Of a stretch of 56,523 nt of DNA, positions 1,717 to 44,982 are shown piece after piece (within the stretch, counting starts at the first letter, position 1; every line of letters begins with the position of its first letter). The notes under the pieces are model-generated. The model saw nothing but the letters and a program-made list of their open reading frames with translations. It did not search any database and had not been told where the DNA came from. Source of the DNA: Bacteroidota bacterium. GTDB lineage: Bacteria > Bacteroidota > Bacteroidia > Bacteroidales > Bacteroidaceae. The stretch lies in assembly GCA_023458215.1 (NCBI GenBank), contig JAEXAJ010000109.1, positions 1-56,523 of the forward strand, read 5' to 3'. Both the position numbers and the translations under genes were made by a program.

Positions 1717-1826
1717 TTTACTAAAATTGCGTATGACAATTTAGTAAAACTCCACCGACGATTTACTAAATCTCCATCGACGTTTTAGTAAATCGTCGGT
1801 GGAGTTTTACTAAATCTTTTTCACCC
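1717..1826. repeat. 22-base phased palindrome array with a 32-bp hairpin
   Basis: Cores TTTACTAAA or TTTAGTAAA begin at 1717, 1740, 1762, 1784 and 1806, so the step is 23, 22, 22, 22. The bases between cores are variants of CTCCACCGACG or its reverse complement. Because the third full unit is inverted, bases 1739-1770 and 1784-1815 are a perfect 32-bp inverted repeat around a 13-base loop. No ORF is present. The array lies upstream of the DXS-like gene and downstream of the minus-strand hydrolase gene. Confidence 0.9.
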
Positions 1827-2090: not shown

Positions 2091-3176
2091 TTAATAAAAA
2101 GTGACTTCGCCTATTGTCGGCATCAAGACATTCAGTGAATCCTTATCTCTCAGGCTCACGGCATTCTTTATCGGCTCGTCCCAAGGATGCCGTGCCAACG
2201 CATATTTAGAATGATGTACCGTCAGGTATTTCTTGGCTTGCAGGTCATTGGCTATGCGGCTCAGATACACCGGCATGGTATGGATGTACTTCCAGTCTTC
2301 ATTGTACTGTCCATTCTCCAGTATAGCCAGATCGATATCCGGGTATTTCTTACCTATCTCGGCAAAATGTGTATCATAACCACCGTCTCCACCCATATAT
2401 ATCTTCTGCGAAGGAGTCTCTATAAGGAAAGAAGCCCAAAGTGCCTGATTTGATTTCAAGAAACGACCCGAAAAATGACGGGCCGGCAAACAATGTATCC
2501 GAAAGCCCTCATTTAGTGCAGCATCTTCAAACCAATCCAGTTCTATTAACCGCTCTTTATCAAAGCCCCAGTATTCAAAATGCTCACCTACTCCCAGCGG
2601 ACAAATTACTTTCTCCACACGGTCTTTCAGTTGCATCACTGTATGATAATCCAAATGATCCCAGTGGTCGTGCGTAATGATAAGATAATCAATATCCGGC
2701 ATATCGGCAGGCTTATAAACGTCCGTCCCTTTGAAGGGCTTGTTTACAAACGAAACCGGAGCGCCCATACAGAAAACAGGGTCTACAAGAATGCGCTTGC
2801 CTTCTGCCTGAACAAGATAAGAAGAATGCCCGAACCATACCAGTAGATTTTCATCTTTATCCAGTTTCTTCAAGTCTGTTTTCACTACCGGGATCTCTTT
2901 TTCAGGACGCAAACCTTCTTGTTTCTTAAATATGAAGTCCCACATAGCCCCCATTCGTCCACGGCGGGCAGTCATCAATACTGTGTTATGCAGGTTCCTG
3001 AACTCTCCGTCTTTATAATGCGGAGACTTCTTTATCCGCTCCAACCGCTCGCCCTGCGGCGTTCTTCCAAAACTGGGTTGACTGACAAACATCCATCCTG
3101 CTATCGCCGCAAGGAGTATAATAGCTGCTATCATACCTATTATCATACGTACTTTTCTCTTTTTTAATAATCTCAT
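2091..3176 (-). CDS. membrane-anchored MBL-fold metal-dependent hydrolase (UlaG / NAPE-PLD-like)
   Basis: 361 aa. A hydrophobic segment at about residues 10-30 after a basic start (MRLLKKRKVR) suggests an N-terminal anchor or uncleaved signal. The metal-binding signature THDHWDH is intact, followed by LPARHFSGR and GGDGGYDTHF, which supply further ligands of the metallo-beta-lactamase fold. The layout resembles the UlaG/NAPE-phospholipase D-like branch, but the substrate cannot be read from sequence. It stands alone between a 580-base gap and the divergent PfkB gene. Start ATG 3176 gives a coherent hydrophobic N-terminus. Fold secure, substrate unknown. Confidence 0.85.
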   Translation of the reverse strand: MRLLKKRKVRMIIGMIAAIILLAAIAGWMFVSQPSFGRTPQGERLERIKKSPHYKDGEFRNLHNTVLMTARRGRMGAMWDFIFKKQEGLRPEKEIPVVKTDLKKLDKDENLLVWFGHSSYLVQAEGKRILVDPVFCMGAPVSFVNKPFKGTDVYKPADMPDIDYLIITHDHWDHLDYHTVMQLKDRVEKVICPLGVGEHFEYWGFDKERLIELDWFEDAALNEGFRIHCLPARHFSGRFLKSNQALWASFLIETPSQKIYMGGDGGYDTHFAEIGKKYPDIDLAILENGQYNEDWKYIHTMPVYLSRIANDLQAKKYLTVHHSKYALARHPWDEPIKNAVSLRDKDSLNVLMPTIGEVTFY

Positions 3177-8319: not shown

Positions 8320-8327
8320 CTGAAAAT

Positions 8328-8440
8328 AGTGATTAGTGATTAGTGATTAGTGATTTGTTATTAATGATTAGTGATTTGTATTAATGATTAATGAACATCA
8401 GCAAATCACTAATCACTAATCACTAATCACTAATCACTAA
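8328..8440. repeat. heptamer-arm hairpin element E1 between nrfA and resB
   Basis: The plus-strand left arm 8328-8357 is four-fold GTGATTA-type repeats ending in TTTG; the right arm 8402-8440 is about five-fold ATCACTA repeats beginning CAAATC. The arms are complementary over about 30 bases. Between them is a degenerate inner copy of the same repeat. The right end lies 3 bases from the nrfA stop codon and the left end 8 bases from the resB ATG. Confidence 0.92.
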
Positions 8441-12715: not shown

Positions 12716-13855
12716 TCACTTCGCCATTGTCTTGCCTCTACGCATCAACCGACGTAGCCATAAATAGTATCCGGTTAAGGGTAAGGTGGCGCCAAGCAAA
12801 GCGGCAATGAAAGTCAGAATGCGAGTAAACATACCGCCCCAACTGCCCACATGTACCGAGTAGATCCAACCACGAAGTTTTCCTGAGAGTTCGGCATCTT
12901 TATATAAGGTGGTTTCTGTGATTTCACCGTTACGGGGATTAAAAGCATACCGGTCTGTGGCACGCAGATTACCCAAGCGATTGACTGCTACCGTTGCCGA
13001 ACCTTTAGAAATGGTGATTAGTTTATTATCCGGATTGCGGTCTTTCAGTGCGTCGTACACTTGTTGCCAGTGGGCATAAGGCGAATGTCCGTGAGCTCTG
13101 TTGCCGGATTTACCTTCAGGTTTGCCATGACCGTTGGTTGCAGGTTTGCCATGTGCGCTGCCTTGTGGCACTTCTGCTCCGAACACTTTATAAAAGCCGG
13201 TACGATACCAGGAGAAAGACCAGGTAAGTCCGGTGAGTGCTATTGCCAAAAGGAAGACAAGGGTGTATATGCCACCCGCTACATGCAGGTCGTACCAAAA
13301 ACGTCGCCAGCCTTTGTTTGTTGCAATCTTCAGGCTGCTTTTGAAGATTTTCTTTGTGCGAGGCCACCAGATTACAATCCCCGATATCAAGACGAACACA
13401 AACATCAGTGTACTGACGCCTACAATCATCTTTCCCCAAAAGATGCCTCCGTCAGGTTTCATACTATCCAGCAACCAGCGGTGCATGCGAAACATGGTAT
13501 AGAAGAACGGGATTCGTTCGCTTTTCCCTTTTATCTCGCCGGTGTACTGGTCTACGTAGATAGCGCTCCGGCGTCCTGGAGAAACACTGACCTGATAGGC
13601 GCGTTCAGGGTCGGAAGTTACGCTTACACCGGTAATAGACATGCTGTCCGGCAGAGCTTTGGTTACTTTGACAAGCAAAGAGTCCATCGGAAGCGGAGAT
13701 GCTTCTACCTGCCGCACATAGTAAAGATCGGGACGGCACATCTCTGTTATTTCGGTTTCGAATACCAAAGCAGCACCCGAAAAACAAATAAGGGCTATGA
13801 TTAGTCCGAATGGTACAGACAACCATAAATGTATTTTACGAAAGGTCTTTTTCAT
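12716..13855 (-). CDS. PepSY-associated membrane protein, XusC-like
   Basis: 379 aa. A first helix at about residues 10-32, a periplasmic PepSY-like region (to about 140), helices near 145-170 and 195-220, a His- and Gly-rich loop around 235-262, and a last helix near 345-370. This is the PepSY_TM layout of iron-siderophore uptake proteins, often thought to be inner-membrane reductases. In B. thetaiotaomicron the gene after the siderophore receptor and DUF4374 lipoprotein is xusC, a PepSY protein; the order here is the same. It is separated from the DUF4374 gene by 433 bases of repeat arrays, unusually long for an operon. Confidence 0.82.
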   Translation of the reverse strand: MKKTFRKIHLWLSVPFGLIIALICFSGAALVFETEITEMCRPDLYYVRQVEASPLPMDSLLVKVTKALPDSMSITGVSVTSDPERAYQVSVSPGRRSAIYVDQYTGEIKGKSERIPFFYTMFRMHRWLLDSMKPDGGIFWGKMIVGVSTLMFVFVLISGIVIWWPRTKKIFKSSLKIATNKGWRRFWYDLHVAGGIYTLVFLLAIALTGLTWSFSWYRTGFYKVFGAEVPQGSAHGKPATNGHGKPEGKSGNRAHGHSPYAHWQQVYDALKDRNPDNKLITISKGSATVAVNRLGNLRATDRYAFNPRNGEITETTLYKDAELSGKLRGWIYSVHVGSWGGMFTRILTFIAALLGATLPLTGYYLWLRRLMRRGKTMAK

Positions 13856-13881: not shown

Positions 13882-14010
13882 CAAGAAGTTAATTTCGTGT
13901 CGGCAAGATATTAATTTCGTGTTTGCAAGAAGTTAATATCTTGTAGTACATCTTATTAATATATTGTAGTACAAGATATTAATATGATTCCCGGCAAGAA
14001 GTAAATTACA
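13882..14010. repeat. 22/23-base phased palindrome array A between xusB- and xusC-like genes
   Basis: TTAAT cores at 13889, 13911, 13933, 13956 and 13979, with a degenerate sixth near 14002, a step of 22-23 bases. The consensus unit contains the dyad CAAGATATTAATATCTTG. Bases 13933-13945 and 13970-13982 form a perfect 13-bp inverted repeat. No ORF is supported. Confidence 0.88.
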
Positions 14011-14143: not shown

Positions 14144-14150
14144 GCTTCCG

Positions 14151-14282
14151 GTTTCAAGCTTCGAAACCTCCAGTTTCATACCGTGGAACTGCAAGTTTCA
14201 ACGGTTGAAACTATCGGTTTCAATGGTTGGAACTGTTGGTTTTGACGGTTGAAACTGTTGATTCGGATGATTGAAACTTCTT
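14151..14282. repeat. 22-base phased palindrome array C
   Basis: GTTTCA or a variant begins at 14151, 14173, 14195, 14217, 14239 and (degenerate) 14261: a step of exactly 22. The clearest unit is GTTTCAA, three bases, TTGAAAC. The array ends 7 bases from the stop codon of the DUF4374 gene. Confidence 0.92.
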
Positions 14283-14288
14283 TCAGCC

Positions 14289-15692
14289 TTAGTTTAACTG
14301 ACTCAACTTACCGATACCTGTAATTTGAGTAGCGTCTACAGTAACTCCTTTGGTAGCTTGTGCAGTAACCGGATCTATTTTATAAACAGCAGGAGTACCT
14401 TCGGTCAGCGTCACTGCCATGTAAGCAAAGCCGTTATCGGAATAGGGTGCGTTGCCATAACCCGAAATCAAACTGGTATCAGGAAGACCTGTCACAAAAG
14501 TAAGCTTCTTGGTGCTTGCCTTGAATATGGCCAGCTGATTGGCAGTATAGCCGGTTTCGCTTAAAGGACGGTCGTACATCAGCATCAGGAAGTAATCGTC
14601 CGAAATATGCCAGCAACGCATGAAGGATTTTCCACCGGCTTGCTCTTCGAGGTTACAGTAGTAATCATCAAAATCGGTCTTTCCGCTGGGGATGCGCACT
14701 ACACCGGCGGGTAAAGTAGTTTGTTGGCGGGCATCGGTCATAGTCTTGGCAAAACTCGGAGAGAATACATATACGTCACCGTTGTCGGCAGCCCAAATGG
14801 TTTGGTAATACTGGGATTTATTACGGCCGCAGGCATAGCTGATTTTATCGGTCTTGACAAGCTTCTTGGTTTTGAGTGTAGCATCGTCGAAGATGGCTAC
14901 CCAGCATTCGTTAGGGTATTGCGTCCATTGCAATTCGCCTTTCTTATAACTGCTGCTGTTAGTGCCGCCGTCTTCGGTCTTCACCAGACTTTCATTACCC
15001 GGCAGAATATACTTACCACCTTCCACGGCAGCACCATATTGACTCAAGCCCATGGGTACGGCTGCACTGAACAACTTGCCGCTACGTTCAAGAATACCGG
15101 CAAGGGTTACGTATTCACCATTGCCCAGGAAGTTCTCCGACAAATAAGTTTTATCCTTCGTATCATTGGTCGTGTAAGTCTCTGCCGCTACATCCAAGTA
15201 AGAAAGCAGGAAGGATTTAGGCAGATAGCCGTTTGCGTCTGCATAATCGGTGCTGCCATCACCGGTGGAAGAAGTAATGATGTATTTGTCGAAGATACCA
15301 AAAGTAGTAAATCGCTTGATGGCAAATTCATTGGAACGAGCTTGTACTTCATTCGCGGCGTTGAGTATATAGGAACGGGTAATACCGGCATTTCCCTGAT
15401 TGTAGGTCAGGGCATAGAGGTACCGGTCTTTATAGAATACCCACTGCGTGGCACCATCGTTCAGAGTACCGTTGTTTTTTACCGATATGCTGCCGCCGTC
15501 CAATGCTTCGGAAGTAACCAATACATTGGTTGTGTTGCTTCCTGAACCGGTAGTAGATGTGGCGAGAACGAACTCACCTTTACCTTTATCACTGCCGCCA
15601 CCGGTCACGTCGTCAGAGTCCGTACAAGCGGTCATTGCCAAACTTGCCAATGCAGTGGCAATCATTCCTGTTAAAAAGAAATTCTTTTTCAT
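14289..15692 (-). CDS. DUF4374 surface lipoprotein, XusB-like siderophore-binding protein
   Basis: 467 aa from ATG 15692. The lipobox LAMTAC puts the lipid-carrying cysteine at residue 23; it is followed by TDSDD, an acidic tract of the kind linked to surface export in Bacteroides. The rest is a single repeat-rich beta domain without membrane segments. DUF4374 proteins are predicted beta-propellers; in B. thetaiotaomicron XusB is such a protein and binds siderophores at the cell surface. It lies 37 bases after the TonB receptor gene. A longer frame starting at 15761 lacks a signal peptide and overlaps the receptor gene, so I rejected it. Family secure; ligand inferred. Confidence 0.85.
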
Positions 15693-15729
15693 GTTGGTTT
15701 TTACCTTTATATTTAAAACTATTGATTTA

Positions 15730-18105
15730 TTAATTCCCAAAATACACACGTACTTTTCCATAGAATGCCCGTCCGGCTTTCTGAAGGCTGAAGTTGTCGT
15801 ATAGCTTTTCGTCCGTCAGGTTGCGGCACTCGAAGGACACGTTGTAACGTCCGTTCTTCAAGCTATAAGAGAGCGCCAGGTTGTGCGAGAACTGGCCGGG
15901 CACTACATACTCTCCTTTATTCGAACCGAAGATGGCTGAGTAATAGGTGAAACTATGCAGATATTGATTATCGTAAGTCACCGTCAGTGTATTGCCTTTT
16001 CTACCAAGGTTGCGGTAATAGAAAGTCACATCCGAGTCGGCAAAAATATAGGGCAAGTTCGGCATGCGTTCGCCGTAAGCCAGGTTGTCGGCATTACCGG
16101 AGATGGACTTCTTCATGTTGTCACGCACATTCATCTGCGTAAAGTTACCTCCCACGCTGACCCAACGGGCAAAGCTGTAACGTGCCGAGAAGTTGAAGCC
16201 TTTGGTCAGCACCTTGCCGTAGTTGATGTAAGTGGCGGCATACTTGCCTCCGCTCAGGTCGGCAATGTTACGCTGGATGTAGTCTTGTGTATTGCGATAC
16301 ACCAATCCGCCTTCCACATAAACGGAGTGCTTGCCGAAGCTGCGTGTATAACTCAGATTGAAGTTCACGTTGTCGCTGTTTTCAGGCTTGATGCCGATAT
16401 CACCCATTTCGAGGTCTTCGTCACCGAACATTTCTTCGATGGTGGGCAGACGGTAAGCCTTTTCGTAGGACAACTTGGCTTGCAAGCCGGGCAATATGAA
16501 GTAAGTTCCGGCAGCGCCATACCCCATCGAACTTACACTACGGGTGGTACGTTCATAGTTATCCTGATTGGTATTCGTAGCAATCGGACCTGCCACATAC
16601 TGATTGTAGAGTTTACCGAATACAGAGAAGTTCCAGTGCTCGGACGGCATTAGTCGATAGGACAAACCGGAGATATTCTTGCGGGTTTCCTTGGCAATGG
16701 CATCTTCAGTAGCTTCTTTGGCAAGCAAAGAAGTATTGGAACGCCTGAAAGCATTCAGCACATGATTGAAGGTGAAAGTATGCGCACGACCGAGGCGGTA
16801 GTTGGCGGTAAAGGTACCGTTCCAATTGTTATTATTCGCCTCGGAATACTGATAAGACTGCTCGCCGGGAGAGTTCATCAACTTCTTGTCTCCAAGCCAG
16901 TTGTATTTATAAGAAGCGGTATCGACGTTGGTTGTCAAGTTCTTGTTGTAATTGGCTGTCAGCACCACGTCCAGCCCTTTGGTAAAAAGATTGCGTTTGC
17001 CATACTCTAAAGAAGGCATCAGCGAGTGCCCTTTGCGGTGCTTCTCTCCGTAGACGATGGTTTGGCGGACACCCGTCTGAATGTCCTGATACATATTAGA
17101 ATAGGTGAACCCCAACATCAGGCGGTCTGCCCACGATTTGTCCAGTATCCCTATCTTTCCGATGATAGCTTCGTTGTGGAACGTATCGTTGAAACGCTTC
17201 ACACGCTCCTTTTTGTCACGGTTTATCTGCCCCGTCTCGAAATTCTCTACGGGAGAGTAAACATGATAATCGTTATCCGAGTAGTTCTGGAAAGCATTGA
17301 TCTCGTAAGTGAAACCGTTCTTGAAGGTCTGCCCGAAGTTTACGTATGACTTGTGGGTATTGAACGAACCGTAAGAATAGGAAGCATCCAAAAACCAGCG
17401 GCGACGCTTCTTATTAGTCACAATGTTGATGACTCCGCCGATGGCATCGGTGCCGAAACCAACCGGAACGACTCCTTTATATACCTCGATGCGGTCGGCA
17501 AAGTTAACGGGAATGTTATTCAGTCCGAAAGAACTGCCTACGCCTTCCTGCGGCACGCCGTCAATAAACACCTTGACATGCTTGCCGCTAAACCCGTCCA
17601 GCATCAGTTGCATGTCCGATCCTACCCCACCCGATTCGCGGAGCTTCATGCCCGGCGCTTTGGTCAGGGCGTCACTCAGGTTTTTGGTCGTATTCTGTAA
17701 TTCCTTGGTATCTACCGCAACGGCGTTGAACGGAGAACGTTTCACCCGGCTTACACCGGTGGAGACGATGGTTACTTCGTCCAGTTGCTGGGTTTCGGGG
17801 GTAATGGTCAGGTTTTGTTTTACCCGGCTGCCGGCAGTGAGTGCTACCGCTTTTTCCACCGTTTTATAGCCTACTGCCGATACAACTAAGGTATAGTTGC
17901 CGGCAGGCGCATGGAGATGATAAATACCCTCGTGGTTCGTCGTTCCGCCATAGCTGGTACCTTTCAGATAAACGGTTGCGAAATCTACGGTTTCTTTTTC
18001 TGTAGATAGGATTCTGCCCGAAATCATTCCTTTCTCTTGTGCCGAGGCACAGACGGAGAAGAAGGTCAGCAGCAGAAGAGAGATTTTTAATGTAGTTGTT
18101 TTCAA
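15730..18105 (-). CDS. TonB-dependent siderophore receptor, XusA-like
   Basis: 791 aa. Signal peptide ending SVCASAQ (about residue 22), a carboxypeptidase-regulatory-like domain (about 25-105), a TonB-box-like segment near [14 protein letters not shown], a plug domain ([21 protein letters not shown]), then a long barrel ending VRVYFGN. It imports a ligand across the outer membrane using TonB energy. The gene order receptor, DUF4374 lipoprotein, PepSY protein matches xusABC, which takes up enterobacterial siderophores, so iron import is the likely role. A TTG-N20-GAACTTTG promoter and four spaced AGGT-containing repeats lie upstream. Confidence 0.9.
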
Positions 18106-20343: not shown

Positions 20344-20485
20344 TAGTGATTAGTGATTAGTGATTAGTGATTAGTGATTAGTGATTAGTGATTAGTGATT
20401 AGTGATTAGTGATTAGTGATTAGCTGCGCTACCATTCCGCATGGCACACCAACAAATAACTTATAACTAATAACTTATAACTAAT
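20344..20485. repeat. element E3: heptamer run, core and a second repeat type between the transporter gene and queC
   Basis: About eleven perfect TAGTGAT heptamers (20344-20422), a core containing AGCTGCGCTACCATTCCGCA (20422-20441), then AACTTATAACTAATAAC-type repeats to 20485. Unlike E1, the arms are of different repeat types and cannot pair. One end is 1 base from the transporter stop codon, the other 7 bases from the queC ATG. Confidence 0.93.
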
Positions 20486-39523: not shown

Positions 39524-39739
39524 CTATCCACAGCAATTTTTCTTAGTTTCTTTTCGTGCTCCACTGCACTCCGTACGCTTCTTGTCGTACAATTGTTTTA
39601 ATTCACAGCCAGTTGCACAATTTGCACAGGGATTATTTTTATCTTTTGTCCTACGAAAAAAAGTGTAAACATTCTGGCCAATACGAATTGCACACAACAG
39701 CAGCAGCAGACCAACTACCCATTCTTGCCAATTACTCAT
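39524..39739 (-). CDS. FeoB-associated Cys-rich membrane protein
   Basis: 71 aa from ATG 39739. One membrane helix at about residues 6-22, then a basic cytoplasmic tail with CANCATGC, a later CSG and a final NCCG: six cysteines in about 40 residues. Such small proteins regularly follow feoB in Bacteroidetes and Firmicutes and are presumed to assist ferrous iron transport or receive the metal. Its ATG overlaps the feoAB stop (ATGA), so translation is probably coupled. A longer frame to 39829 lies inside feoB and is not favoured. Confidence 0.88.
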   Translation of the reverse strand: MSNWQEWVVGLLLLLCAIRIGQNVYTFFRRTKDKNNPCANCATGCELKQLYDKKRTECSGARKETKKNCCG

Positions 39740-42207
39740 AGAAACAGTCCTCCTATTCGATAAATACCATAAGACATCACCCATGCAAGCAAAGTGGTAT
39801 AGACCGCCGTAAACAACGCCCACTTCCAACTACCGGATTCTTGTTTAATAGCTACCAACGTTGCCATACAAGGGAAGTATATCAACACAAATACCATATA
39901 ACAGAATGCCACCAATGGTGTAATCGGAATACGCTCAGCAAGACTAACCGCATCCACATCGGCATCATTCGTATATAGAACTCCCAATGTACTTACTACC
40001 AACTCCTTGGCACCAACACCCGAAAGCAATCCGATACCTAGTTTCCAATCAAAACCCAAAGGCTTGATGACCGGTTCAATGGCCTTGCCTATCTGCCCGA
40101 TGTAAGAATTTTCCTGTTGTTCGGCAACCGTCTCGTATGCGTTATGATCCGGATAATAGCCGAGTGCCCATATTACAATAGAAGCCAGCATAATGATTCC
40201 TCCCATCTTACGAAGGTATTGCGCACCTTTTTCCCATGTATGACGGAAAATAGATTTGGCCGTCGGCATACGGTAGGGGGGCAATTCCATCACGAATGGA
40301 GTATCATCTCCTTTCACTAGAAAACGAGTGAAAAGACGGGCCATCACCACTGCCAAAATAATGCCTGTCGCATAGATAGCCAACAAAACCAAGCTTGCAT
40401 TGTTCGGGAAGAAAGTACCCACGAGTAACAGATAGATAGGCAGACGGGCGCTACAGGACATCAGCGGATTAACGAGCATCGTAATGAGCCGGCTTTTACG
40501 ATTTTCGATCGTGCGCGAAGCCATTATAGCAGGAACATTGCAACCAAATCCCATAATCAGCGGAATGAAGGATTTGCCATGCAGTCCCATTTTATGCATA
40601 ATCTTATCCATTATGAAAGCCGCACGGGCCATATAACCCGAATCTTCCATCAGAGAGATACAAAAATACAGAATGAGAATATTGGGCAAGAATACAATGA
40701 CCCCTCCTACCCCACCTACGATTCCATCTACCAGCATATCTTTCAGAGGGCCTTCCGACATCGTATCGCGTATCAGATTGCCTATTGCATCTACCAGCCA
40801 TTCGATGGCTTGCATGGGATATTCTCCGAGCACAAAAGTACCCTGAAACATAAGGTACATGAAAAGGAAGAAGATGGGATATCCCCAAATGCGATGTGTC
40901 ACAATAGAGTCGATAACACGCGTGGTATGCTCCGTATCCCGATGATTGTCGACAAATGTCTCCTTCAAGGCGCCGGATATGAAACCATATTTAGCATCGG
41001 TAATAGCTTGTTCGCTATCCTCACAGATCGAGTTACGAAGGCGTTGTTTTTCATGATCGCGCACCTCCAATATCTCACCGCCATTGGGCAATTCTTGAAT
41101 AAAGCGTTCAAGTTCTTTGTCATTCTCCAGCAGTTTTATGGCCAGAAAGCGAGTAGAATACTTATGACGGATATTCTCATTAATACTAATCACCCGTTTG
41201 ACCTCTTCGATGCTTCGTTCCAGTTCCGGACCGTGATTGATATGAATATGGCGATAAAAGCCACGCGGGCGTTCCCCTTCTTCTTTATGGCTGCCAAAAC
41301 CATGATCGGGAACGTATTCCTGATGCCAGTTACGCAAATCATTCAGAACCTCGGCGTGCACTTTTCCTTTTTGATCCAGGAAATCGCCACCCTCATAGAT
41401 ATTGATAATCAAATGAAAAAGTTCGTCGATACCTTTCCCCGTCCGGCTGACGGTAGGCATCATCGGTACACCAAAAAGTTGTCCCAACTTGACATAATCC
41501 AAGGTATTGCCACTAGCCTCCAGTTCATCATACATATTGAGCGCAATGACCATGCGCACATTCATGTCGATTAGTTGGGTGGTGAGATACAGGTTGCGTT
41601 CCAGATTGGAAGAGTCTACCACATTGATAATGATATCGGGCGTTTCGTCAATGATGTGGCGGCGTACATAGATTTCTTCGGGAGAATAAGCTGAAAGTGA
41701 ATAAGTTCCGGGAAGGTCGACAATGCGGAAGTGATAGCCTTGAAAGTCGAAATAACCTTCTTTGGCATCTACCGTGACGCCGCTATAGTTGCCTACATGT
41801 TCGTGCGAACCGGAAGCGATATTAAAGAGAGATGTTTTACCACAATTGGGGTTACCTACCAGCGCTACATTGATTGTACGGCGCTTACCTAGTGCGAGAC
41901 GCTTCAAATGCTCTTCGCCCAAATGAATGTCTTCACTAAACCCTTTGTGAAATCCGGGTTGGGCAACCTGTTGCTTTATTTCCTCCTCGCTGACTACCTC
42001 AATCATTGCAGCCTCTTGCCTACGCAACGAGATTTCATACCCCATCACTTTGTATTTGATCGGATCTTTCAGCGGAGCATTCAATAAAACCTCTACATTC
42101 TTTCCTTTGATAAATCCCATCTCCACAATCCGTTTACGGAAACCGCCGTGTCCCAACACTTTTACGATTACACCCTTCTCACCGGTTTTCAATTCGGACA
42201 AACGCAT
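39736..42207 (-). CDS. feoB: ferrous iron transporter, FeoA-FeoB fusion
   Basis: 823 aa from ATG 42207. Residues about 1-75 are a complete FeoA (SH3-like) domain starting MRLSELKTGEKG; the FeoB G domain begins near 110 with G1 GNPNCGKT (118-125), then DLPGTYSLSAYSPEE (G3 region) and ALNMYDE (G4). A helical linker leads to about ten membrane segments with the paired gate motifs (FGCNVPAIMASR; GVGAKELVVSTLG). It imports Fe2+ through the inner membrane. The fusion is common in Bacteroides. A strong promoter lies 29 bases upstream. Confidence 0.97.
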   Translation of the reverse strand: MRLSELKTGEKGVIVKVLGHGGFRKRIVEMGFIKGKNVEVLLNAPLKDPIKYKVMGYEISLRRQEAAMIEVVSEEEIKQQVAQPGFHKGFSEDIHLGEEHLKRLALGKRRTINVALVGNPNCGKTSLFNIASGSHEHVGNYSGVTVDAKEGYFDFQGYHFRIVDLPGTYSLSAYSPEEIYVRRHIIDETPDIIINVVDSSNLERNLYLTTQLIDMNVRMVIALNMYDELEASGNTLDYVKLGQLFGVPMMPTVSRTGKGIDELFHLIINIYEGGDFLDQKGKVHAEVLNDLRNWHQEYVPDHGFGSHKEEGERPRGFYRHIHINHGPELERSIEEVKRVISINENIRHKYSTRFLAIKLLENDKELERFIQELPNGGEILEVRDHEKQRLRNSICEDSEQAITDAKYGFISGALKETFVDNHRDTEHTTRVIDSIVTHRIWGYPIFFLFMYLMFQGTFVLGEYPMQAIEWLVDAIGNLIRDTMSEGPLKDMLVDGIVGGVGGVIVFLPNILILYFCISLMEDSGYMARAAFIMDKIMHKMGLHGKSFIPLIMGFGCNVPAIMASRTIENRKSRLITMLVNPLMSCSARLPIYLLLVGTFFPNNASLVLLAIYATGIILAVVMARLFTRFLVKGDDTPFVMELPPYRMPTAKSIFRHTWEKGAQYLRKMGGIIMLASIVIWALGYYPDHNAYETVAEQQENSYIGQIGKAIEPVIKPLGFDWKLGIGLLSGVGAKELVVSTLGVLYTNDADVDAVSLAERIPITPLVAFCYMVFVLIYFPCMATLVAIKQESGSWKWALFTAVYTTLLAWVMSYGIYRIGGLFL

Positions 42208-42235
42208 AGTCTTCTGCCTTTTTGGTTTTTGCGTG

Positions 42236-42267
42236 CAAAGATACGATTTATGTTCACAAGCCACAAA
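42236..42267 (-). promoter_or_regulatory. promoter of feoAB
   Basis: Minus strand: TTTG (42267-42264), 20 bases, TATCTTTG (42243-42236), a consensus promoter. Confidence 0.75.
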
Positions 42268-42398: not shown

Positions 42399-42618
42399 TA
42401 TTCGTTCATGTACTAGAAAGTAATTTCTTCCTGCCTAACAACTATTCGTTCGACATCTGTTCTCTATTCGTTCGACAGTTGTCGCACGAATAGAGAACAG
42501 ATGTCAAATGAATAAACAACATATATCGCACGATTAATTGTTAGGCAGGAAAAAATTAGTTTCTAGCGAATGAGAAAACTAATATCAGGCAAGTAGATAT
42601 TAGTTTTATAGAAAAGCC
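42399..42618. repeat. 22-base phased palindrome array between feoAB and tilS
   Basis: TATTCG at 42399, 42443 and 42465, its inverse CGAATA at 42487, then TGAATA (42509) and CGATTA (42531), all on an exact 22-base grid; 42421, 42553, 42575 and 42597 hold degenerate units. Bases 42452-42471 and 42486-42505 are a perfect 20-bp inverted repeat whose loop itself holds CGACA-GT-TGTCG. An outer pair, 42413-42441 and 42538-42566, matches at 27 of 29 bases and spans 154 = 7 x 22 bases. A further 12-bp hairpin is at 42575-42607. No ORF. Confidence 0.9.
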
Positions 42619-42705
42619 TCATCAGGGTACAAGCGAAGCATACTTCTGCACAAACCTTCCATAAATTGCAGCAAGTATCAACACGAGTAATCACAAAACT
42701 TATTG

Positions 42706-42713
42706 TATCTTTG
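42706..42713 (+). promoter_or_regulatory. -7 box (TATCTTTG) touching the tilS start codon
   Basis: TATCTTTG ends 4 bases before ATG 42718. A start site at the usual distance would fall on or next to the ATG, giving a leaderless or nearly leaderless mRNA. No clear -33 TTTG. Confidence 0.5.
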
Positions 42714-42717
42714 CAAA

Positions 42718-43992
42718 ATGATTGTGCAGAAAACATCGCAATACATCCATCTAGCCAAGCTCTTCTCTCGTGAAGATAAGATACTTGTGGCGCTGAGCGG
42801 AGGAGCTGACTCAGTAGCTTTATTGCGCCTGCTCCTGACATTAGGTTATACTTGTGAAGCTGCCCATTGCAACTTTCACCTCCGCGGGGAAGAATCCAAC
42901 CGGGACGAAGCTTTCGTACGAGAACTTTGCAAAGACTTGGGGGTACAACTGCACGTCATTCACTTTAACACAGAAAAAGAAGCAGAAGAACGGCATATTT
43001 CAATTGAAATGGCCGCAAGAGAATTGAGGTATGCTTGGTTTGAAAACATACGAAGAGAATGCGGTGCAAATGTGATTGCCGTAGCACATCACCAAGATGA
43101 CAGCGTTGAGACATTATTGCTCAACCTTATCCGAGGCACCGGAATCAATGGGCTACGAGGCATTCAACCTCAAAATGGATATATCGTCCGTCCCCTGCTC
43201 GGCCTGGACCGGAAAGAGATTATTGATTATCTACAAGATATCAAGCAAGATTATGTAACCGACAGTACTAATCTTCAGGATGAATACACCCGTAACAAAA
43301 TCCGCCTGAACCTGCTCCCTATGATGCAGGAAATCAATCCTTCCGTCAAAGAGAGCATACTCAGAACCTCGCAAAACCTGAATGAAGCCGCCGCTATATA
43401 TAATAAAGGTGTAGAAGATGCCAAACAGCGAGTGTTAACCGAAGAAGGAATAAACATCCGTGCCCTGCAACAAGAACCGGCACCGGCAACAATCTTGTTC
43501 GAGATTTTATATCCACTCGGATTCAATGCCGCCCAAGTGAAAGATATCTATCGTGCTTTAGACGGACAATCGGGAAAAGTATTTGCCAGCCCCGGCTTTC
43601 GCGTCATAAAAGACCGTGACCTGTTACTGATATGCCCTATTCACGAGCCAACCAAACCCGTCTTGAAAATAACCAAGCAGCCATATAGCCAGGACTTCAT
43701 TATTCCCCGCGACAAAAACACGGCCTGCTTCGACGCAGACAAACTAAAACACCCTCTCTCCTTACGCCTGTGGCAACAAGGAGATACTTTTGTCCCTTTC
43801 GGAATGAAAGGCACAAAAAAAGTAAGCGATTACCTCACCAACCGCAAATTCTCCCTTCCAGACAAAGAACAACAATGGGTACTTTGCTGTGGCAAAGACA
43901 TCATCTGGCTGATAGGAGAACGAACAGACAACCGCTTCCGCATAGACGAAGACACGAAGCAGGTGACAATAGTTATGAGTTATAAGTTATAA
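42718..43992 (+). CDS. tilS: tRNA(Ile)-lysidine synthase
   Basis: 424 aa from ATG 42718. PP-loop ATPase motif SGGADS (27-32) in [45 protein letters not shown] and the C-terminal substrate-binding domain ([19 protein letters not shown]). TilS converts cytidine 34 of tRNA-Ile(CAU) to lysidine and is usually essential. A TTG at 42703 could extend it by five residues but would lie upstream of the -7 box end. The last codons, VMSYKL, are encoded by repeat element E5. Confidence 0.97.
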
Positions 43993-44067
43993 GTTATTGC
44001 CATGCGGTATATATGAATAATTAATATCAGCATAAATAACAAATAACTTATAACTCATAACTTATCA
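43973..44067. repeat. element E5 across the tilS stop codon
   Basis: Left arm of AGTTATGAGTTATAAG repeats (from 43973) contains the tilS stop; a core GCCATGCGGTATATATG follows (from 43999); the right arm CAAATAACTTATAACTCATA ends at 44067, directly before the stop codon of the convergent gene. GCCATGCGG is also in the E3 core. Confidence 0.88.
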
Positions 44068-44901
44068 CTAAACAATAATCCTATCCTCCTTCTGCCTTTT
44101 GAAGCAATCGGCCAATAGTACCGCGAAGGGGGTATCATAAGTACGGGCTTTCTGCGGACACCTTTTCACACATGCGCAACACTTGATGCACTTTTCTGCA
44201 ATTGTATTACATTCATCATCTTTCAAGATGGCTCCTGTAGGACAATGCTTCACACAGATTCCACAATGAGTACAAAGTTCGGCATCCACCTTCGGAGTGC
44301 GAGGAAAGGGTACACCACTTTTACGCAACTTCATAATTTTGCGCATAAACCGTAATAAAGGAAAGAACGGTTGGCGGGGACGCTGGATACGTGTTACGTC
44401 TACCCCGTACAATTTGTCCATATCAGCCGCATTTGCAACCTTAGCAAGCACTTTCTGACCAAACAACTCTGCAAACTGCAAATCCTCCGCATCCGGGCGT
44501 CCGGCGGCTACAGGGTATTTCGCACTGCTATAAGAATGTTCTCCTACAAATGTAGCCCCCGCAATTACCTTAAAGCCGAGACCGGAAGCGAAAGCATCCA
44601 AATCAATCAACGCCTTTTCATAAGCACGGTTGCCATAAACCACCACCAAAACTACGGGAGAACCGTTAGCATGAATTTTCTTCATCCGCTCCAATGCCAA
44701 CGGAGCCACATGCCCGCCATAAACCGGAACGGAAATAACAGTCAACGCATCCTGAGGAATTTCAAATCCTTCAATAGCGCTTAATGTTAAATCAATATTT
44801 GTCACTTTTGAACAACCAATGCCGCGAACAATTGCAGCTCCAACTTGTTTAGAAGTGTGGGTAGGCGAAAAAGTGACTAAACAAACCTCGTGTATATCCA
44901 T
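44068..44901 (-). CDS. EFR1-type flavodoxin-ferredoxin protein
   Basis: 277 aa from ATG 44901. The N-terminal half is a flavodoxin-like domain (LVTFSPTHTSKQVGAAI for the phosphate loop, SVPVYGGHVAP later). The C-terminal part has two 4Fe-4S clusters, CTHCGICVKHCP and CIKCCACVKRCP. This is the EFR1 layout: an electron carrier or flavin-dependent reductase of anaerobes. Partner unknown. An upstream TTG at 44925 gives an extension unlike the family start. Its stop codon abuts element E5. Confidence 0.9.
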   Translation of the reverse strand: MDIHEVCLVTFSPTHTSKQVGAAIVRGIGCSKVTNIDLTLSAIEGFEIPQDALTVISVPVYGGHVAPLALERMKKIHANGSPVVLVVVYGNRAYEKALIDLDAFASGLGFKVIAGATFVGEHSYSSAKYPVAAGRPDAEDLQFAELFGQKVLAKVANAADMDKLYGVDVTRIQRPRQPFFPLLRFMRKIMKLRKSGVPFPRTPKVDAELCTHCGICVKHCPTGAILKDDECNTIAEKCIKCCACVKRCPQKARTYDTPFAVLLADCFKRQKEDRIIV

Positions 44902-44982
44902 AATTTTATCTTGATAATACAGCAAAGATAAAGTTTTAAATTTAAAAAAAGGCGAATTATTTATGAAACCAAAAATATTTAT

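What the first reader, a model, noticed from the sequence alone, without database searches (positions are those of the whole stretch)
42399..42618. A class of intergenic arrays with a fixed 22-base grid but locus-private sequences
Four loci (1717-1826, 13882-14010, 14151-14282, 42399-42618) share no sequence, yet each is built of short palindromic or near-palindromic cores placed every 22 bases (23 in a few steps). Units occur in both orientations. A conserved period with an unconserved sequence suggests selection on spacing: 22 bases is about two DNA turns, so every core faces the same side of the helix, as expected for cooperative protein binding; alternatively a copying mechanism that makes 22-base units. 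I know of no named element with this description, though I could not search.
Basis: partly seen in the sequence, partly recalled or inferred. Interest (0 to 1): 0.78.

Follow-up and report, generated by a model that had tools for sequence, protein, structure and literature searches.

The report
Bacteroides arrays with 22-base pitch
Gut Bacteroides carry many short intergenic arrays, often of about four mirror-symmetric sites set 22 bases apart; the sites come in several sequence families, and at one well-sampled place the sites and their spacing are kept across species while the DNA between them changes, as expected for docking platforms of a protein not yet identified.

Summary
The four arrays are real: each has a lag-22 signal that none of 1000 shuffles reached. 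They belong to a class common in Bacteroidaceae: about 38 arrays/Mb in sampled Bacteroides, where 38 of 50 intergenic repeats of unit 9 or longer lie at lag 22 or 23; none in 0.4 Mb of phylum-wide Bacteroidota or 0.2 Mb of E. coli. 'Locus-private' is wrong: arrays 1, 3 and 4 have relatives in other Bacteroides; array 2 has only weak hits. With spacers of 2-32 bases allowed, 74 of 75 listed TTTASTAAA pairs and 44 of 44 TCGTYCGACA pairs have a 22-base pitch.

Four units is the commonest size. At one site read in 30 genomes, 17 show lag 22; in 16 aligned species five of six core-end positions differ by 0.03-0.20, spacers by 0.49, flanks by 0.42-0.55. One species has an unrelated 22-base array there.

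Best reading: helically phased, multi-dimer DNA-binding platforms in several specificities, dispersed like REP/BIME repeats but without RAYT genes in 9 of 12 genomes. The protein and function are unknown.

The parts
1717..1814 (.). Array 1, TTTASTAAA family: cores start at 1717, 1740, 1762, 1784, 1806 (steps 23, 22, 22, 22). 1739-1770 and 1784-1815 form a 32/32 inverted repeat with a 13-base spacer. Intergenic; both flanking ORFs as called on -.
13882..14010 (.). Array 2, core around CAAGAWRTTAATWTC; pitch 22 then 23. Only weak possible relatives found.
14147..14278 (.). Array 3, core GTTTCAANNNTTGAAAC and degenerate versions, about six units at pitch 22.
42399..42618 (.). Array 4 (the finding): half-cores ATTCGTTC at 42400, 42444, 42466 and inverted ones at 42485, 42506, 42529; best lag-22 stretch 42475-42537; imperfect inverted-repeat arms about 42415-42477 and 42502-42564. 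Family TCGTYCGACA.
39736..42264 (-). Left neighbour of array 4: fused FeoA-FeoB ferrous iron transporter
42703..43992 (+). Right neighbour of array 4: TilS-like PP-loop tRNA lysidine synthetase
12716..13855 (-). Neighbour of array 2: PepSY_TM protein
14289..15761 (-). Neighbour of array 3: DUF4374 protein
2091..3176 (-). Neighbour of array 1: metallo-beta-lactamase-fold protein (Lactamase_B_2)

Best explanation
The arrays belong to several dispersed families of chromosomal DNA elements in Bacteroidaceae. An element is most often about four dyad-symmetric cores on a 22-base pitch (23 in some families), about two helical turns, so the cores face one side of the DNA. Shown: the pitch, the typical size of 3-5 units, dispersal, sharing between species, and, for the TTTASTAAA family, conservation of core ends over spacers at one orthologous site. 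Inferred: each family is bound by dimers of a sequence-specific protein; neighbouring dimers join into a finite two-fold symmetric assembly (compare multi-site Lrp/AsnC operators), which fixes pitch and number while each protein fixes its own core. Arrays lie mostly between tandem or convergent genes, some inside likely operons, and less often between divergent genes, so a BIME-like role in nucleoid or transcript-boundary structure is more likely than promoter control. Arrays spread by copying; units are re-copied within arrays, sometimes inverted.
For: Exact pitch: 74 of 75 listed TTTASTAAA pairs (the tally has 167 forward pairs in 8 genomes; the rest were not listed) and 44 of 44 TCGTYCGACA pairs, with spacers of 2-32 allowed. 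Size: rounded unit number 4 in 20 of 56 arrays (3: 17, 5: 10, 2: 6, 6: 2, 9: 1). Of the 34 TTTASTAAA copies, 16 have exactly four perfect cores, and 26 have four grid positions if cores with up to two mismatches count (orthologous copies included). Footprint: 16 aligned orthologous intergenic regions, mean pairwise difference core 0.299 (core ends 0.03-0.20 except one position at 0.39, centre 0.53-0.61), spacer 0.486, flank 0.424, or 0.547 away from genes. Across families arms are conserved and dyad centres vary: lag match 0.75-0.87 at 2-6 bases from a dyad, 0.53-0.57 at 0-1; this is partly built in, since dyads were found by pairing outside the centre. In six MITE copies of G118 the array differs at 5 of 1125 base comparisons, against 139 of 891 on the left and 64 of 1350 on the right. 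Overall two-fold symmetry: core centres first C and last G in 18 of 28 arrays, the reverse in 2. G.U against A.C mismatches on the sense strand of arrays between tandem genes are 39:36, giving no sign of RNA pairing. Published Lrp sites: 13-17 bp imperfect inverted repeats, centre-to-centre two or three turns, octamers (PMC2995911, passages).
Against: No protein was identified and no binding was tested. Neighbours show no regulon: thiG|thiC, ftsL|PBP, aminotransferase|DAHP synthase, crcB, gcvT, sua5 and others. Many core families would need many proteins. The Lrp-type operators in the passages read have spacers of 15-17 or 27-29 bases (PMC10201364), longer than the 13 here. At the aminotransferase|DAHP site the cores shifted together to TTTTTAAAAA-like sequences in the ovatus-like clade, and G004 holds an unrelated array there; concerted re-copying explains that as well as a change of specificity. 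10 of the 30 orthologues have short intergenic regions (20-107 bases) without an array, one of them with a single core left. The unbiased conservation test covers one locus only. Over all strands as given, G.T outnumber A.C mismatches 76:52, which I cannot explain. The headline array itself lies between divergent genes.
Confidence: 0.45

Rival explanations
1. Nucleic-acid hairpins: the array acts as a self-pairing structure in RNA or extruded DNA, so that sequence is free to change as long as the arms pair; it would work like REP hairpins in operons (mRNA stability, termination, supercoil buffer).
For: Many arrays contain long inverted repeats (15 of 72 score 20 or more, against 2 of 150 control intergenic pieces of 200 bases). 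The feoAB-tilS array of three related species keeps near-perfect arms (29/29 in G155), with matching changes on both sides at several positions. Arrays are scarce between divergent genes: 0 of 16 in G155, 3 of 31 TTTASTAAA copies with both neighbours called, 8 of 51 against 12.9 expected by length. Spacers 1 and 3 pair more than in a global shuffle (211 against 171 +- 9), also without the four near-perfect arrays (160 against 143 +- 8, P 0.02).
Against: Sense-strand G.U and A.C mismatches are about equal (39:36). The excess pairing of spacers 1 and 3 is not significant in a within-species shuffle (211 against 202 +- 8, P 0.16, low power); only 4 of 28 arrays pair at 12-13 of 13. Spacers are not self-complementary (196 against 224 +- 10 shuffled). 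No Rfam family reaches its gathering score in the window apart from two tRNAs.
Confidence: 0.25
2. Selfish or neutral copying: an unknown copying process (template switching, or an unrecognised transposase) makes and spreads 22-base units, and the pitch reflects the enzyme, not function.
For: Dispersed families: one family is at 10 sites in 400 kb of B. ndongoniae. The TTTASTAAA array rides in a multi-copy MITE-like element in G118, and G154/G014 share a longer element around another array. Perfect inverted copies occur. Different arrays occupy the same intergenic site in related species.
Against: Conservation of core ends over spacers in 16 species at one site and of the array over flanks inside MITE copies. 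Flanks are not shared between most arrays compared. Y1 transposases (RAYT type) are absent from 9 of 12 genomes, in all nine of which arrays were seen.
Confidence: 0.25

Closest known systems
BrickBuilt minisatellite/MITE of Porphyromonas gingivalis (PMC4596501; abstract, sections 5 and 8, and part 1 of 2 of section 7 seen)
   Same: Same order (Bacteroidales); intergenic; 23-nt tandem unit with conserved and variable positions; predicted stem-loops; the paper also cites 22-, 23- and 41-nt repeats in strain W83. The array-bearing repeats of G118 and G154 resemble it.
   Different: BrickBuilt is one sequence family with 1 to 22.8 units, with leader, tail and IS5-like terminal repeats; here there are many families, typically 3-5 units, and mostly no shared flanks. 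The paper reports full BLASTn matches only in P. gingivalis and homologues in P. gulae.
REP/BIME elements with RAYT transposases (PMC3733652, passages; other REP papers by search listing only)
   Same: Short palindromic extragenic units, several families per genome, both orientations; placement between tandem and convergent genes and inside operons is recalled for E. coli BIMEs.
   Different: Fixed 22-base pitch, a typical number near four, and no RAYT-type gene in 9 of 12 genomes; the GTAG/CGTC end tag was not tested.
Lrp/AsnC multi-site operators (PMC2995911, PMC10201364, passages)
   Same: 13-17 bp dyad sites, regular helical phasing (two or three turns centre to centre), 3-5 sites, octameric assembly that wraps DNA.
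   Different: The operators in the passages have spacers of 15-17 or 27-29 bases, not 13; arrays here lie partly where no promoter is expected and next to unrelated genes; no Lrp protein has been linked to them.
CRISPR arrays (features recalled)
   Same: Regular spacing of short, partly palindromic repeats.
   Different: The whole unit is 22 bases, cores are degenerate, and units occur in both orientations.

Membership tests
REP/BIME with RAYT | Short palindromic extragenic unit, in clusters with both orientations | tested here: met
REP/BIME with RAYT | Same unit dispersed at many chromosomal sites | tested here: met
REP/BIME with RAYT | RAYT/Y1 transposase gene in the genome | tested here: not met
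   PF01797 in 3 of 12 Bacteroides genomes; the control search finds it in E. coli
REP/BIME with RAYT | GTAG or CGTC tag at one end of the unit | not tested
   defined in PMC3733652
BrickBuilt MITE | 22/23-nt tandem unit in intergenic DNA | tested here: met
BrickBuilt MITE | Shared leader and tail around the repeats | tested here: not met
   46 arrays compared with arrays masked: apart from same-locus copies, neighbouring arrays and two segmentally duplicated pairs (L054/L058, L055/L058), shared flanks only for L074/L075/L076 and one 38-base match of L052 to L060; an embedding element also in G118
Lrp/AsnC operator array | Dyad sites of 13-17 bp at two or three helical turns | tested here: met
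   GWTTTASTAAAWC at 22 bp; the spacers are shorter than those in PMC10201364
Lrp/AsnC operator array | Bound by an Lrp/AsnC protein | not testable with these tools
   needs pull-down or ChIP
Lrp/AsnC operator array | Located at promoters of regulated genes or of the regulator | tested here: inconclusive
   10 of 31 TTTASTAAA copies lie between convergent genes, 3 between divergent genes, 18 between tandem genes, which may hold promoters; neighbours are mostly housekeeping genes, one TetR-type gene among them
CRISPR array | Near-identical repeats of roughly 21-48 bases with unique spacers of similar length (recalled) | tested here: not met
   core plus spacer together are 22 bases; cas genes were not searched

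The most novel reading that the evidence does not exclude
A Bacteroidaceae-wide set of four-site, 22-base-pitch DNA platforms for a previously unrecognised family of oligomeric architectural proteins: assembly geometry fixes pitch and number, while each paralogue and its cores change sequence specificity together, so spacing outlives sequence at the same genomic sites.
Probability: 0.3. Interest if true: 0.88.

Novelty: new variant of a known kind. Interest (0 to 1): 0.7.

Why it matters
Bacteroides are dominant gut bacteria. A class that makes up most of the longer-unit intergenic tandem repeats in the sampled Bacteroides, with a pitch kept while its sequence turns over, points to a widespread protein or copying machine that I could not find named. 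It can be tested with pull-downs, pitch changes and array deletions in laboratory strains. It also warns against calling repeat arrays 'locus-private' from a single window.

Tried and rejected
RAYT/REP membership: rejected, since 9 of 12 genomes lack Y1_Tnp. RNA hairpin selection: no G.U excess on the sense strand and no significant spacer covariation within species. A promoter-regulon reading: neighbours are mostly unrelated housekeeping genes (30 proteins from part of the loci). A shared MITE for all arrays: flanks are not shared for most. Presence in phages or a plasmid: no intergenic 22-base array in three phage stretches and one plasmid (about 14 kb of intergenic DNA, so weak). Literature: no paper describing the general class came up in the search listings (open-access PMC only), nor in the passages of PMC5771137, PMC4060949 and PMC3733652.

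Biases: the Bacteroides sample includes related strains at the same loci, so counts are not all independent. The orthologue groups were found through the core pattern; one search was run to avoid that for one locus only. One search kept 16 of 30 orthologues, by intergenic length 200-220. Searches used 27 of the 36 arrays (9 dropped as duplicate, overlapping or orthologous) plus the window's; a few orthologues remain. Lag-22/23 hits in 'coding' calls: 7 in Bacteroides, 4 in other Bacteroidaceae, 1 in other Bacteroidales, some of them probably spurious ORFs. The reversed-pattern control gave 8 hits in four other genomes; that gave one hit on each strand in G045.

Full report
What is there. The window is judged to be from a Bacteroides species (nearest TilS 78% in B. 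rodentium); its genome is not held. All four stretches have a self-match at lag 22 far above shuffled sequence. Tandem Repeats Finder also gives period 22 in each of them, with 23 for one piece and 44 for another.

How general it is. I scanned ungapped self-matches at lags 5-79, resolving overlaps by score. In 1.01 Mb from Bacteroides (124 kb intergenic) the intergenic hits at score 16 or more are 31 at lag 22 and 7 at lag 23, against 12 at all other lags of 9 or more (3 of these at 44), plus 21 arrays at lags 7-8; dinucleotide shuffles of the same intergenic DNA gave none. Other Bacteroidaceae: 12 at lag 22 in 0.50 Mb. Other members drawn from the order: 1 at lag 23 in 0.39 Mb. Twenty genomes drawn from the phylum (0.40 Mb) and E. 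coli (0.20 Mb): none. A further 400 kb of G155 gave 9 at lag 22 and 3 at lag 23 at the same threshold.

Anatomy. Units are palindromic: 0.65 dyads per 22 bp against 0.13 for column-permuted arrays, in 62 arrays. Of 110 steps between successive dyads, 59 are 11 or 11.5 bases. Arms are conserved and dyad centres vary. Arrays are typically 3-5 units, four being commonest. Some hold long perfect inverted repeats, such as 43/43 in L025 and 32/32 in array 1 of the window.

Not private. Searching 157 Bacteroides genomes with array 1 and its flanks gave array matches in 13 genomes at E below 1e-3, mostly at several unlinked sites, and with the flanks unmatched. The pattern TTTASTAAA N{2,32} TTTASTAAA has 11-41 forward matches in each of eight genomes (reversed-pattern control 0-1), and 74 of the 75 listed pairs span 31 bases, which is pitch 22. 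The core of array 4 behaves the same: 44 of 44 pairs at pitch 22 in 9 of 157 genomes. The core of array 3: 4 of 157 genomes, pitches 22, 22, 22 and 44. In B. ndongoniae one family recurs at 10 sites in 400 kb. Families also recur between species, for example CTCAGTATACGACTGAG-like units in B. ndongoniae, the ovatus-like strains and G155.

Conservation. TTTASTAAA arrays sit at the same intergenic sites in several species, in seven groups of 2 to 7 loci; these were found through the pattern and so are biased. To avoid that, I took the aminotransferase|DAHP-synthase site of G155 and read the 30 best matches to its 831-base stretch, the query's own included (147 of 157 genomes match). Of these 30, 17 show lag 22 among their best three lags. 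Sixteen with intergenic length 200-220 were aligned: core 0.299 mean pairwise difference (TTT end 0.09-0.20; AAA end 0.15, 0.39, 0.03), spacer 0.486, flank 0.424, or 0.547 away from the genes. In the ovatus-like clade the cores have become TTTTTAAAAA-like on the same pitch; G004 carries an unrelated array of pitch 22 at that site; ten genomes have only 20-107 bases there and no array, one of them with a single core. G037 lacks the array that its close relative G099 has at this site. At feoAB-tilS, 19 of 29 distinct intergenic regions printed are 120 bases or shorter (my count), while several of the longer ones carry arrays of different sequence.

Where they lie. Array contexts: 27 tandem, 16 convergent, 8 divergent, against 27.5, 10.6 and 12.9 expected by intergenic length; in G155, 12 tandem, 4 convergent, 0 divergent. 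Some are between genes of likely operons such as thiG|thiC and ftsL|PBP. The window's array 4, between feoAB and tilS, is one of the divergent exceptions.

Mechanism. Conserved core ends on a rigid two-turn pitch, a usual number of about four and an overall two-fold symmetry suggest a finite assembly of dimers on one face of the DNA. Published Lrp/AsnC operators have a similar geometry, though those in the passages read have longer spacers (PMC2995911, PMC10201364). That is a likeness only; no protein was tested. RNA hairpins are less likely because G.U and A.C mismatches are about equal on the sense strand, and spacer pairing is not significant in a within-species shuffle. Copying clearly happens: dispersal, perfect inverted copies, and arrays inside multi-copy elements in G118 and G154. 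In G118 the array is far better conserved than the rest of the element (5 of 1125 differences, against 139 of 891 and 64 of 1350).

Known relatives. BrickBuilt (23-nt repeats in a P. gingivalis MITE) is the nearest named element (PMC4596501; abstract, sections 5 and 8, part 1 of section 7). REP/BIME elements are similar in placement, but RAYT-type genes are absent in 9 of 12 genomes. I found no description of the general class in the searches listed under Tried and rejected.

Noticed in passing
window 8327-8440 and 20344-20423: Heptad arrays (TAGTGAT)n; at 8327-8440 the array is followed by its inverse complement (AATCACT)n, so heptads too occur in both orientations. Lags 7-8 are the second commonest intergenic repeat class in Bacteroides.
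   Followed up: no
window 43971-44069: Inverted AGTTATA/ATAACTT heptads between the 3' ends of tilS and the converging ORF 44068-44925.
   Followed up: no
L194-L199 (G118): A MITE-like element (matches of about 250-370 bases) in at least six copies that carries a TTTASTAAA array; the right end of the match is at the same position in 4 of 5 comparisons.
   Followed up: partly
L117, L120, L121, L126, L131: Other Bacteroidaceae have intergenic arrays with periods 21, 11 and 42, also near multiples of the helical turn.
   Followed up: no
L244 43698-43757 (phage B124-14): A 22-base repeat inside a phage ORF region.
   Followed up: no
L080 1710-1797 and L001 1-54: B. muris and B. fluxus arrays of the same family as the window's array 4; the B. 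fluxus one is next to tilS at a contig end.
   Followed up: partly
arrays: Over the strands as given, G.T mismatches in dyads outnumber A.C 76:52 although the strands are arbitrary; unexplained.
   Followed up: no
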